The notes under the pieces are model-generated. The model ran no database searches. It saw nothing but the letters and a program-made list of their open reading frames with translations, and had not been told where the DNA came from. Positions 2,218-6,170 of a stretch of DNA of 64,000 nt are shown here, piece by piece. Every line of letters begins with the position of its first letter. Position 1 is the first letter of the stretch. This DNA is from Bacillota bacterium (GTDB lineage Bacteria; Bacillota_E; Sulfobacillia; Sulfobacillales; JAIMBI01), in NCBI GenBank assembly GCA_021828405.1, contig JAKARZ010000001.1, positions 62,001-126,000 on the forward strand, given 5' to 3'. Made by a program: the position numbers and the translations under genes.

Positions 2218-4023
2218 CTACGAGATCGCGGAGTCCCTCCAAAGGTGGTCGGGCCGCCCTCGAGCCTTGCCCATGGCCACCAGGCCCTTGCGCACCAGGT
2301 GGTCGGGGTCGACGCCCGGCCCTCCCAGGGCCACCCCGATGTTGAGGGTGACCCGCAGGGATCCGGTGTCGCCCGGTACGGCAAACAGCGTGTCGCCCAC
2401 CCTGTCTTGGAGCAACACCGCCTCCCGATCCAGCCCCTCAAGGGTCGACGCTGGGCAGAAGGCCAGAAAGGTTTCCAATCCGTACCGAACCAGCACGGAG
2501 CGTGACGCAAAGGCTTGGCTCGCCAGCGCGGCCACCTGCTCCAGCACGACGTCCATGCCGCCCCCGAAGCGATCATGCAGCCTTCCGAGGTTATCAACCT
2601 CAAACACCACCAGTCCGACCCGCCCATTGGATCGCCGGGACCGCTGCAGGAGGAAGAGGCTATACCTGTAGCTGAAATACCCGGTGAGATCATCCCGAAC
2701 ATGTCGCGGATGGATTCGGTCAAACCCATTCCACCAAACGGCTGCGCCCACGGTCAGCAGAAAGCTATCGGTCAGCGAAGCACGGGGAGCGCCCGCCCAA
2801 CCCACGTACACGGCGGTATAGGCCACGCCGGCCACTATGGCGGGGCCGAGCGGCAAGCGCAGCGCCGCCAGCAGTAGTTGCCACAAAAGCAGCGGCAAAT
2901 AGGGGCTCGCCGCCCCACCCGTCAGTGCGATCCACGCCGTGGTCCAGAGAAAGTCCAGCGCCGACTCCAGGTAGGCCCTCCTCGCGGAGACAAAGGGCTG
3001 CAGGGCTAGCAGTCCCCCCCCGAGGCTCCACAGCAGGCCCGCGGCGCCCACCGCCCAGAGCGTGAGCGTGGAGCTACCCGGATGCTGCAACAGGTACCCG
3101 ACCACGACGCCAAAGATCACCACGCAGCGCGCACCAGCCAAAATTCGCTCCATCAGCCATTGGCGGTGGCGCCGCCAAGCGGCGGCGGCCCCGGCGCTCG
3201 GGCGGACGTTCGGCTCGGCCTCAGCCGGAGCGGGGGGCGCGGGACTCTGGCCGACGGGGGCATGCGCCCGAATCTGCCCGGGTGTCCAGTGGTCGGCGGG
3301 CGCCGGCCGGCCAAAGCCAAATCCCTGCACCGCAAATTCCCCCAGCAGGTCAAGGGCCGCCAGCACCTCCGGACCCTCCACCCCCTCGATAATCAAGGGG
3401 GCGCCGATGCGCTGGGCCCACTCCCGCCACTGAAGCAACGGACCCGGGCGACCGTCCAGCCACGCTCGCGTCAGCCGCTGGTCCACCTTGATGAAGCTCG
3501 GGCGCAGAAGAGCCACTCTCTCTGGGACGCTGTCGCCGGCGCCCGCATCGTCGACCGCGAGCAGCACCCCTTGCTCCTGCCAGTATCTGGCCCCGGCACT
3601 GGCCAGGACCGGATCGCTGACTTTGGTCTCGGTGACCTCGAACACCACCGTGTCGAGCTGGGGCCGGTAGCGCGCCAGGAGCTGCCTCGCGCGCTCGCGG
3701 TCACCGCAGCGAGCCTCCAGGAATCGGGCCGACACATTGACGAACAGGCGGCCGGGAAGCGCGGCCCCGTCACGCAGGGCCGTCTCCAAGGACAGCAGAT
3801 CCAGCTCGACCCCCCAGGGGGTGGACTCGGCCGTGCCCCAAAGTTGGTCGGGCCGCAAGGCGCCGGGGGGCCGGGCCAGCGCCTCGAACCCAAGCAGCTG
3901 GCCGCTGGGCACCTGCCACAGCGGCTGGAAGCGGTGCGGCAGGTTTCTTGCCCGCAGCACCTCGCTCATCACGGCCAGCGCCGCCTGATGCGCGGCGGGA
4001 CCGGGGGGCCGCCCCTCCGTCAT
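2218..4023 (-). CDS. EAL phosphodiesterase-like protein with central membrane region and C-terminal degenerate GGDEF domain
   Basis: The 601-residue protein starts with an EAL domain (about 25-245). Key residues look intact: EAL at 47-49, Asn96, Glu129, Asp158-Asp159, Lys179, Glu213 and Gln233, so cyclic-di-GMP hydrolysis is plausible. A linker and about five or six membrane segments follow (about 298-434). The C-terminal region (about 443-600) aligns with GGDEF domains (DDLTGYFSYRYS, VVFEVDNLG), but the signature reads GLETF at 515-519, so cyclase activity is probably lost. EAL before GGDEF is the reverse of the common order. The start overlaps the stop of the DUF5305 gene by 4 bases (ATGA), implying translational coupling in the operon with the signal peptidase and secreted protein. 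Its likely role is to tie that surface system to c-di-GMP. Confidence 0.88.
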   Translation of the reverse strand: MTEGRPPGPAAHQAALAVMSEVLRARNLPHRFQPLWQVPSGQLLGFEALARPPGALRPDQLWGTAESTPWGVELDLLSLETALRDGAALPGRLFVNVSARFLEARCGDRERARQLLARYRPQLDTVVFEVTETKVSDPVLASAGARYWQEQGVLLAVDDAGAGDSVPERVALLRPSFIKVDQRLTRAWLDGRPGPLLQWREWAQRIGAPLIIEGVEGPEVLAALDLLGEFAVQGFGFGRPAPADHWTPGQIRAHAPVGQSPAPPAPAEAEPNVRPSAGAAAAWRRHRQWLMERILAGARCVVIFGVVVGYLLQHPGSSTLTLWAVGAAGLLWSLGGGLLALQPFVSARRAYLESALDFLWTTAWIALTGGAASPYLPLLLWQLLLAALRLPLGPAIVAGVAYTAVYVGWAGAPRASLTDSFLLTVGAAVWWNGFDRIHPRHVRDDLTGYFSYRYSLFLLQRSRRSNGRVGLVVFEVDNLGRLHDRFGGGMDVVLEQVAALASQAFASRSVLVRYGLETFLAFCPASTLEGLDREAVLLQDRVGDTLFAVPGDTGSLRVTLNIGVALGGPGVDPDHLVRKGLVAMGKARGRPDHLWRDSAIS

Positions 4024-4952
4024 GGGGGGGTCACCACCTCTCGACCCACGGTGTAATCATCGCGGCTGGCCGTGCTGGCCTCGGTGTTTTCCTGCGCCGA
4101 GAAGTAGTAGCTCTCCCCGGCGTTTTCCAGCAGGTAGATGTGGCAACCGCCCTCTCCCACGGCATGCAGAATGATCCGCTCGTACTGGTCGGCTAGGCGC
4201 ACCAAGCCCTCCATGGACCCAACCCGAATGCTCCGACTGGATGGGGAAAAGGGCAGGGCGTCCACGGAAATCAAGAGGCTGGCGTACTGCCGCGCGATGC
4301 GGGTCGGCTCGGCCATGGCTCGCTCGGCCCGCTGCTGGACCCGGAGAACGATGACGAGCCCCACCCCCAGCAGAAGCAACAGCGCCGGGCCGAACAGACG
4401 GGCGGTCGACACGGGAATCTGACCCCCAAAGGCGGCGAGGGCATTGGGGCCCACCGAGGCCGCCGTGATCGAGCCGCGGTGCACGGGATTGAGATACGCC
4501 GAAAGGCTGGAGGTTGTGGGCTTTGCCAGTTGCAGCCAGGTTGGCTGCACGACATACGTCAAGCTCGGGGCGTCCGACGCCAGGATGGAGTGGGAGCCCA
4601 CCATCCCCACCGCGTGGACCGAAGCGGTCGCGACCACTTCGTAGGTGTCGGATGAATCGTGTGTCATCGCGCTGACTTGCTCGATAGTGCTAAACAGTTG
4701 GGCCACGTCGATCGACTGCGTCAGAGACACCGTCGACCCGTGAAAGGTCACCGAGGGCTGCCCGGGGAGCCGCTGACTCCATCCACTCGTGCTCACCAGA
4801 GTCGTGGTCAGCCCCGCCGTGCCGCCGAGGCTCTTCCCGCCGGGCACCTGCAGGCGATAGGTGAAGGTCACCTGGACCGTCTTGGCCGGGGGATAGGCCA
4901 CGGGATTGCCGGGGGTCACCCGTCCCTCGGGGTACAGCACACTCTTGGGCAC
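4020..4952 (-). CDS. DUF5305-type membrane protein; N-terminus displaced by a frameshift at a G9/C9 tract
   Basis: The 310-residue open frame holds an extracytoplasmic beta-rich region, one transmembrane helix at about residues 185-205 (LFGPALLLLLGVGLVIVLR) and a cytoplasmic tail. This matches DUF5305 proteins, which are often encoded beside SipW/archaeal-type signal peptidases. The natural N-terminus seems to lie in the neighbouring frame. An ATG at 5148, preceded by an AGGAGG site, begins a second hydrophobic segment (LSTVAGGLSGLAVVAAAVAAW). Joining it to this frame at the C9 tract (5016-5024) would need eight C instead of nine and would give ARPQVISYAQDGHFGYQATV before the present start. 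The gene is therefore frameshifted, misread, or expressed by slippage. The stop overlaps the EAL gene start by 4 bases. Function is unknown; an assembly or sensing role is inference. Confidence 0.7.
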   Translation of the reverse strand: MPKSVLYPEGRVTPGNPVAYPPAKTVQVTFTYRLQVPGGKSLGGTAGLTTTLVSTSGWSQRLPGQPSVTFHGSTVSLTQSIDVAQLFSTIEQVSAMTHDSSDTYEVVATASVHAVGMVGSHSILASDAPSLTYVVQPTWLQLAKPTTSSLSAYLNPVHRGSITAASVGPNALAAFGGQIPVSTARLFGPALLLLLGVGLVIVLRVQQRAERAMAEPTRIARQYASLLISVDALPFSPSSRSIRVGSMEGLVRLADQYERIILHAVGEGGCHIYLLENAGESYYFSAQENTEASTASRDDYTVGREVVTPP

Positions 4953-5689: not shown

Positions 5690-5699
5690 TGTGCTGTCG

Positions 5700-6170
5700 T
5701 CAGTGCGATGCGGCGATGCTAAGCACCGTCGAGATGGGTGCCGGGCCGGCCTCCTGACTCCATCCGATGGTGCACTGCCAGGTTGTTGAACCCGGGCCAG
5801 GGCCAGGGCCAGGACCAGGGCCAGGACCAGGGCCAGGGCCGGGCATCAAGCTGCATGTGTGGAGAGCCGACGAGGCCACGTTGGCTTGGTTGTTGTCAAA
5901 CCACACCGCCACGGCGTCGGCCGGTTGCCCGCCGGGCGCCGGCGTCAGCGTGAAGGTCACATTGGCGAGGTTGTCCGGATCACCCGGCTGACCCGTCAGC
6001 GTATACTGAATGTTGCTGACGGAGTAACCGGTGATGACCCCGGCCCCCTCCCCGGCGCTGGATTGATTCACGACATTGGATGCCATGAATGCGTACGCCG
6101 ATCCACCCAACAGCAGGGTCAAGGCGATAGGGGCCATCACGGTCGCGGTTTTTGAGCGTAAGAGACGCAT
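5700..6170 (-). CDS. Small secreted protein with a Cys-flanked (Pro-Gly)9 tract, candidate substrate of the adjacent signal peptidase
   Basis: The 156-residue protein has a basic N-terminus and a hydrophobic segment (about 10-30, ending SAYAFMASNVV) like SipW-dependent signal peptides of TasA/camelysin-like proteins. The mature part is beta-rich and acidic-neutral (ITGYSVSNIQYTLTG, NVTFTLTPAPG). Cys106 and Cys133 bracket nine Pro-Gly pairs (residues 110-127) and may form a disulphide that closes the tract into a loop. I cannot name the family; similarity to TasA is in architecture rather than a clear motif. The ATG at 6170 follows AAGGAGG, itself preceded by a 10-base tandem duplication. It is the first gene of the operon with the peptidase, DUF5305 and EAL genes, so a surface-fibre or matrix role is likely but inferred. 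Confidence 0.75.
   Translation of the reverse strand: MRLLRSKTATVMAPIALTLLLGGSAYAFMASNVVNQSSAGEGAGVITGYSVSNIQYTLTGQPGDPDNLANVTFTLTPAPGGQPADAVAVWFDNNQANVASSALHTCSLMPGPGPGPGPGPGPGPGPGSTTWQCTIGWSQEAGPAPISTVLSIAASH
5792..5843. repeat. Hexanucleotide tandem repeat (GGCCAG/GGACCA family) encoding Pro-Gly pairs
   Basis: About eight near-identical 6-base units, with GGGCCA and GGACCA variants, lie in the coding sequence of the secreted protein. A 6-base period keeps the frame, so copy-number change would lengthen or shorten the Pro-Gly loop without breaking the protein. Confidence 0.9.

What the first reader, a model, noticed from the sequence alone, without database searches (positions are those of the whole stretch)
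2218..6170. Candidate c-di-GMP-linked surface-fibre or matrix operon: Pro-Gly secreted protein, ER-type signal peptidase, DUF5305 protein and EAL-membrane-GGDEF protein
Seen: four genes on one strand, with ATGA coupling between the last two. Known: SipW-type peptidases process TasA-like matrix proteins in Bacillus, and DUF5305 genes often accompany such peptidases. Inferred: the peptidase is dedicated to the small Cys-framed (Pro-Gly)9 protein, DUF5305 helps display or sense it, and the EAL protein couples it to c-di-GMP. A glycosyl-1-phosphate transferase and a LuxR regulator flank it. I know of no described system with this exact combination.
Basis: partly seen in the sequence, partly recalled or inferred. 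Interest (0 to 1): 0.75.

Follow-up and report, generated by a model that had tools for sequence, protein, structure and literature searches.

The report
Surface-fibre operon with fused signal peptidase
A small conserved bacterial gene cluster appears to make a secreted surface protein, probably a fibre subunit, together with its own signal-cutting enzyme, which in relatives is welded in one reading frame to a membrane protein of unknown function; it looks like an undescribed cousin of the Bacillus TasA/SipW matrix system.

Summary
The genes are real and conserved, but the count is wrong. In 8 of 8 related clusters read here, peptidase and DUF5305 are one unbroken reading frame; in the window that frame breaks at a 9-C run. 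So the operon is three genes: secreted protein, ER-type (Ser/His) signal peptidase–DUF5305 fusion, and EAL-membrane-GGDEF protein. The (Pro-Gly)9 run is a variable loop. A strong RNA hairpin follows the last secreted-protein gene (8 of 8 clusters tested, window included; 0 of 23 control gene ends). A Shine-Dalgarno-like site plus in-frame ATG/GTG lies at the peptidase/DUF5305 junction, suggesting that free DUF5305 is also made. Four related clusters (three genomes) carry a 54-60 aa gene encoding little more than a signal peptide and the conserved N-terminal segment, the design of a donor-strand fibre starter; some add a thioredoxin-like protein and VKOR. The EAL gene is accessory (5 of 9 clusters) and its GGDEF motif is degenerate in the window. 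Best reading: a dedicated processing and assembly platform for a strand-exchange surface fibre, working like SipW/TasA/TapA. Fibre formation is inferred, not shown; the fold comparison of the subunit was inconclusive.

The parts
5700..6170 (-). secreted protein, 156 aa; candidate major surface-fibre subunit
   Evidence: 21 homologues, 369 with the broadened profile; no relevant Pfam/NCBIfam family; beta-sandwich model
6090..6170 (-). signal peptide, residues 1-27, ending GGSAYA|F (cleavage site inferred)
   Evidence: A25 invariant in A4 and A6, A27 and Y26 invariant or nearly so
6039..6089 (-). conserved N-terminal segment, residues 28-44 (FMASNVVNQSSAGEGAG), candidate donor strand
   Evidence: A30, N32, A39, G40, G42 invariant yet pLDDT < 50 at residues 26-39 of the monomer model
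5790..5843 (-). (Pro-Gly)9 loop between Cys106 and Cys133
   Evidence: three or more PG in a row in only 5 of 24 rows of A6
5662..5689 (-). RNA hairpin just after the secreted-protein stop codon, before the peptidase
   Evidence: z -4.1, -3.9; same position in 8 of 8 clusters tested, lowest of 23 control gene ends -1.5
5149..5619 (-). ER-type signal peptidase part of the fusion (GTG start at 5619 by homology)
   Evidence: catalytic Ser/His/Asp invariant in 12 relatives and present in the window's frame by eye; best Foldseek match of relative P0023 is the human signal peptidase complex, E 8.9e-5
5158..5163 (-). Shine-Dalgarno-like AGGAGG inside the frame, 9 nt before the internal ATG
5146..5148 (-). 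in-frame internal ATG at the peptidase/DUF5305 junction
   Evidence: M, V or L at this place in 14 of 14 sequences; codon seen as ATG or GTG in the 9 with DNA at hand
5016..5024 (-). run of nine C where the frame of the fusion breaks in the window
   Evidence: the unbroken nearest relatives P0026 and P0023 differ in the residues there, and L001 has no such run
4020..5148 (-). DUF5305 part: membrane helix, Ig-like ectodomain, membrane helix, small cytoplasmic domain (frame broken at 5016-5024)
   Evidence: 1.7e-9, C-terminal half of the family model; model of relative P0023
2218..4023 (-). EAL - membrane - degenerate GGDEF protein, 601 aa; ATGA overlap with DUF5305
6661..7443 (+). divergent LuxR-type regulator
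   Evidence: GerE 1.1e-17; LuxR-type gene divergent in L002-L007 (in L005-L007 only the DNA-binding part matches)
1403..2242 (-). polyprenyl glycosylphosphotransferase (start uncertain); adjacent in the closest relative L001, about 5 kb upstream in L005
   Evidence: Bac_transf 5.9e-63

Best explanation
This is a dedicated secretion-and-assembly operon for a small Ig-like surface subunit, most likely polymerised by donor-strand exchange as in TasA/TapA. The subunit is exported by Sec; the ER-type (Ser-His) peptidase cuts it near GGSAYA|F. The peptidase is fused in frame, through a cytoplasmic linker, to DUF5305 (membrane helix, Ig-like ectodomain, membrane helix, cytoplasmic domain), so cutting and hand-over to an anchor or assembly base happen in one membrane protein; an internal start probably also yields free DUF5305. 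A hairpin after the subunit gene makes the subunit more abundant than its processing enzyme. The invariant Cys pair is oxidised by VKOR/thioredoxin-like partners, encoded in the cluster in some relatives. A LuxR-type regulator controls it; the EAL protein is an accessory c-di-GMP input. Shown: gene linkage, fused frame in relatives, conserved catalytic residues, hairpin, junction site. Inferred: fibre, strand exchange, anchoring, dual products, dosage, disulphide chemistry, regulation.
For: Peptidase-DUF5305 beside the secreted gene in 9 of 9 clusters (window, L001-L007, L015). One frame in 8 of 8 relatives; 9 of 10 database proteins found are full-length fusions, the tenth a fragment. All 7 places where Pfam DUF5305 rings (6 of 7 genomes) lie in the fused frames. 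Ser42/His80/Asp101 invariant in 12 of 12; best Foldseek match the human signal peptidase complex. The densest run of invariant residues in the subunit (7 of 17, residues 25-42) is its N-terminal segment, unfolded in the monomer model. Four clusters carry a 54-60 aa protein that is little more than signal peptide plus this segment; in B. subtilis tapA1-57 gave proper biofilms (PMC10151520, passages). Hairpin 8 of 8, controls 0 of 23 below z -1.6. Junction SD-like site of 6-7 nt in 7 of 8. VKOR-like gene in 4 of 9 clusters, thioredoxin-like in 3; VKOR over the family cut-off somewhere in 7 of 7 genomes, against 3 of 14 control genomes.
Confidence: 0.55

Rival explanations
1. The secreted protein is a monomeric or matrix/S-layer-associated surface protein, not a polymer; the fused peptidase-DUF5305 only processes and tethers it.
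For: Beta-sandwich model without a specific filament match; variable PG-rich loop and Cys pair would fit a cell-wall or matrix protein.
Against: The conserved but disordered N-terminal segment and its separate mini-gene are hard to explain for a monomer; the hairpin suggests subunit excess.
Confidence: 0.22
2. One reading: a c-di-GMP-controlled fibre or matrix operon in which the EAL protein is an integral part.
For: EAL gene directly follows the fusion in 5 of 9 clusters, overlapping it in the window and L001; most catalytic positions of the EAL domain conserved.
Against: No match at E <= 1e-30 in G002 and G004 and only a partial one, elsewhere, in G003; the L015 cluster lacks it; GGDEF degenerate in window and L001, intact in L005-L007; loop after the DD pair altered, and L007 lacks the Gln of Gln-Gly.
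Confidence: 0.12
3. The subunit is a type-IV-pilin or archaellin relative.
Against: Its neighbour is an ER-type type I peptidase, which would cut the hydrophobic helix off; no pilin family hit in Pfam or NCBIfam for 21 members. Pilus ATPases or prepilin peptidases were not searched for.
Confidence: 0.06

Closest known systems
TasA/TapA/SipW of Bacillus subtilis and SipW-BsaA of Clostridium perfringens
   Same: ER-type (Ser-His) peptidase dedicated to a neighbouring secreted subunit; aromatic residues around the cleavage site (TasA TWA-AFND, PMC10269814, passages; here SAYA|FM, inferred); a separate N-terminal strand donor (TapA, PMC10151520, passages); in C. perfringens a predicted terminator after bsaA with read-through (PMC7395162, passages), comparable to the hairpin here.
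   Different: Subunit matches no TasA/camelysin family model, and the fold comparison was inconclusive; peptidase fused to DUF5305 in relatives; only 1 of 12 fusion proteins reaches the SipW model at E <= 0.01 (0.0026), while 12 of 12 match the archaeal-type peptidase model; TapA is a two-domain protein, the mini-protein has no room for a domain.
DUF5305 (PF17231)
   Same: C-terminal half of the fusion matches it (1.7e-9 window, 1.1e-7 L001).
   Different: Function unknown; the term is in 0 papers of the library; the match covers mainly the second helix and the cytoplasmic domain; 0 of 14 control genomes have it.
SipA of Streptococcus pyogenes (signal peptidase homologue needed for pilus polymerisation)
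   Different: Catalytic Ser/His/Asp conserved here; that SipA lacks an active dyad and serves another kind of pilus is recalled.
Archaeal thread of Sulfolobus acidocaldarius
   Same: Predicted signal-peptidase-I substrate whose subunits assemble by donor-strand complementation (PMC9715654, passages).
   Different: No sequence link shown here; no peptidase fusion known to me.

Membership tests
ER-type (archaeal/SipW-like) signal peptidase I | Ser-His catalytic dyad with conserved Asp | tested here: met
   Ser42, His80, Asp101 invariant in 12 of 12 fusion proteins; dyad as hallmark in PMC10269814 (passages); the Asp as a SipW residue is recalled
ER-type (archaeal/SipW-like) signal peptidase I | NCBIfam TIGR02228 model | tested here: inconclusive
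   E 4.5e-12 in the window, 46.1 bits against a cut-off of 51.85; 12 of 12 relatives match at E <= 0.01
SipW equivalog (NF046067) | score over the curated cut-off | tested here: not met
   14.7 against 190 bits
DUF5305 (PF17231) | Pfam gathering score | tested here: met
   37.9 bits against 29 in the window, profile positions 109-217 only; L007 23.6 bits is under it, and 4 of 7 genomes are over it
TasA / camelysin | sequence family | tested here: not met
   none of the 7 NCBIfam and 11 Pfam models listed at E <= 1 for 21 members is of this kind; that the libraries hold TasA/camelysin models is recalled
TasA / camelysin | TasA fold | tested here: inconclusive
   subunit model pLDDT 72; only weak, mixed matches
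TasA / camelysin | donor-strand polymerisation | not testable with these tools
   suggested by the unfolded conserved N-segment and the mini-protein
active EAL phosphodiesterase | catalytic motifs | tested here: inconclusive
   Glu of EAL (EVL in L007), Asn, Glu, Asp-Asp, Lys and Glu-Gly-x-Glu positions invariant in 5 of 5; loop is DDAG, not DDFGTG; Gln-Gly lost in L007 (canonical motifs recalled)
active GGDEF diguanylate cyclase | GG[DE]EF motif | tested here: not met
   YGLET in window, YGPDT in L001; GGDEF intact in L005-L007

The most novel reading that the evidence does not exclude
One open reading frame encodes two products: a peptidase-DUF5305 machine that cuts a fibre subunit and docks it in the same molecule, and, from a conserved internal ribosome site, a free DUF5305 anchor. 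In some relatives a 54-60 aa gene encodes nothing but a signal peptide and a donor strand, a naturally minimal starter or cap for the fibre.
Probability: 0.3. Interest if true: 0.75.

Novelty: new variant of a known kind. Interest (0 to 1): 0.58.

Why it matters
It offers a first functional setting for DUF5305, a term found in no paper of the library searched; it ties a large family of small secreted proteins without a Pfam name (369 matches, among them Chloroflexota records) to a dedicated ER-type peptidase in thermophile-related Bacillota; and it gives a compact, testable candidate for a strand-exchange fibre whose parts come as one operon. A cultured isolate, Candidatus Hydrogenisulfobacillus filiaventi R50, has a homologue of the subunit (P0009; isolate described in PMC10080006, passages); whether it has the fusion was not tested.

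Tried and rejected
Phase variation at the C run as a conserved switch: rejected as a family trait, since L001 has no such run and P0026 differs in the residues there; a strain mutation and an assembly error cannot be told apart without reads. (PG)9 as the defining feature: rejected. TasA/camelysin membership by profile: not met; TasA was not among the 50 rows shown by Foldseek or by VIA-align for the subunit, which excludes nothing. Promoter and terminator scan of 3900-6750: no promoter-like site, and the two terminator-like sites lie on the other strand, uninformative. Solved-structure sequence search of the subunit: nothing at E <= 1; of the fusion: one weak peptidase hit, E 0.0054. Thioredoxin-like protein of L007 against PDB sequences: only weak thioredoxin rows, E 0.43 and 0.84, below two unrelated rows at 0.034, and no Pfam family for it or the L006 copy; the WCxxC motif was read by eye, and the L015 copy gives Thioredoxin_2 at 2.4e-5, under its cut-off. 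Candidatus H. filiaventi paper: the words filament and thread do not occur in its text.

A wider census of the fusion across its class did not complete: the same request came back as busy 11 times. Breadth is therefore unmeasured. The 7 genomes come from one scan with the pattern GGSAYA[FY]M, where 7 of 15 stretches encoded a relative, so they lean to close relatives. Two searches of the protein database scored only the roughly 8000 candidates sharing most words, and lone peptidases of about 150 aa were outside the length range. Rows dropped: P0019 (second half unrelated to the family, no Cys pair) from A4 and A6; P0007, P0014 and P0016 from A6; P0018 and L005 in A6 are the same protein.
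Full report
Observation. The window's minus strand at 6170-2218 holds a 156-aa secreted protein, a signal-peptidase frame, a DUF5305 frame and an EAL/GGDEF protein. The last two overlap by ATGA at 4020-4023. The peptidase frame (5640-4690) has no stop before the DUF5305 start region: it runs into the first membrane helix of DUF5305 and then loses frame at nine C (5016-5024), after which the DUF5305 frame continues in another phase. 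The ORF from 4952 therefore lacks the N-terminus of DUF5305.

Relatives. One scan with the secreted-protein alignment gave 7 loci in 7 MAGs titled Bacillota (6) or Actinomycetes (1). tblastn of the window's proteins placed peptidase and DUF5305 directly downstream in 7 of 7, the EAL protein next in 4 of 7 (L001, L005, L006, L007), and a divergent LuxR-type gene in 6 of 6 whose contig covers it (L001's contig starts 292 bases upstream of the secreted gene). A second cluster in the L006 genome (L015) has VKOR, secreted protein, mini-protein, fusion and thioredoxin-like protein, no EAL gene next to it, and a LuxR-type end upstream on the same strand. With the window that makes 9 clusters.

Junction. 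A Shine-Dalgarno-like site stands before an in-frame start at the linker. In synonymous-codon resampling (5000 draws each) a 6-7 nt site at spacing 9-10 was matched or beaten with P 0.0046-0.038 in 7 of 8 sequences; L005 gave 0.26. L015 was not in that test; AAAGGA precedes its ATG. At the start position 14 of 14 sequences (window, L005-L007, L015 and nine database proteins, four of them the L001-L004 proteins) have M (9), V (4) or L (1) (counted by hand). The codon is ATG or GTG in the 9 with DNA at hand; it was not seen for P0026-P0030. The place was chosen by eye and the sequences are related, so this is suggestive only.

Subunit. Cys106, Cys133 and an A-x4-A-x-N ... A-G-x-G pattern (residues 25-42) are invariant in 24 of 24 rows of A6 (P0019, P0007, P0014, P0016 left out, P0018 and L005 identical; P0019, whose second half is unrelated, lacks the Cys pair). 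Three or more PG in a row occur in 5 of 24 rows, at most nine (window) and eight (L006, where they precede the first Cys). The model (pLDDT 72) is a beta sandwich whose conserved residues 26-39 are below pLDDT 50. The few family models listed at E <= 1 each reach 1-2 of 21 members and are unrelated to each other. The broadened profile reached 369 proteins; among the 120 listed most are about 120-125 aa, some from Chloroflexota.

Mini-protein. Between subunit and fusion, L005, L006, L007 and L015 encode 55, 60, 60 and 54 aa: a signal peptide, an ANxVxPxGAG-like segment and a short tail with one possible strand, aligning with the subunit's N-terminus; the L015 copy fits less well. In the window and L001-L004 the gap (up to about 110 nt) has no room for it. 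In B. subtilis the construct tapA1-57 showed proper biofilm formation (PMC10151520, passages).

Hairpin. A GC-rich stem begins within about 16 nt of the stop of the (last) subunit gene in 8 of 8 clusters tested (window, L001-L007; not L015), with different sequences: z -2.3 to -6.0 and -2.5 to -6.8. Of 23 other gene ends in the same stretches the lowest z is -1.5, and the first copies of the tandem subunit genes of L003 and L004 give -0.15 and -0.57. Only L005 has a following U run (by eye). I read it as a dosage step: much subunit, little enzyme.

EAL protein. Full-length homologues exist in G001, G005, G006 and G007, beside the fusion; none at E <= 1e-30 in G002 and G004, and only an EAL-range match elsewhere in G003. 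GGDEF is degenerate in window and L001, intact in L005-L007. It is an accessory.

Disulphides. VKOR-like genes lie in 4 of 9 clusters (L003, L006, L007, L015) and a thioredoxin-like gene in 3 (L006, L007, L015). Scores for the L006 and L007 VKOR are just under the Pfam cut-off, and the thioredoxin assignment rests on WCxxC and a sub-threshold match in L015. All 7 genomes have VKOR somewhere, 3 of 14 control genomes do. This fits the invariant Cys pair.

Context. In the window the operon lies between a glycosylphosphotransferase and nucleotide-sugar genes 7564-15580; L001 keeps the transferase adjacent, L005 has one about 5 kb upstream, and none was found by tblastn in the other five loci.

Conclusion. 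A conserved variant of the dedicated-peptidase/secreted-subunit theme that I found nowhere described. That rests on searches for DUF5305 (0 papers), SipW with TasA and archaea, SipW with fusion and c-di-GMP, SipW bifunctional, Hydrogenisulfobacillus, camelysin/Sulfobacillus and bundling pili in an open-access library only; listings were seen, and passages of five papers (PMC9715654, PMC10151520, PMC10080006, PMC10269814, PMC7395162).

Noticed in passing
window 217-1225 (-): Broken transposase remnant in different frames; both pieces match DDE_Tnp_1_assoc, one of them under its cut-off.
   Followed up: partly
window 7564-15580 (-): Nucleotide-sugar/polysaccharide genes: two DegT aminotransferases, UDP-GlcNAc 2-epimerase, hexapeptide transferase, Gfo/Idh oxidoreductase, UDP-sugar dehydrogenase.
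   Followed up: partly
L006 10273-10340: A PG run of eight before the first Cys of the subunit, encoded like the window's by hexanucleotide-like repeats; such loops seem to expand independently.
   Followed up: partly
L003 9420-9824 and L004 9397-9831: A second subunit gene in tandem upstream of the first, without the hairpin.
   Followed up: partly
window 32462-32472 and 23394-23402: Other long C runs (11 and 9), possible sites of frame errors like the one at 5016-5024.
   Followed up: no
L005 14233-14892 (+): After the EAL gene a 220-aa frame with a very weak DUF5666 match (E 0.064) stands where L006 and L007 have the thioredoxin/VKOR pair.
   Followed up: no
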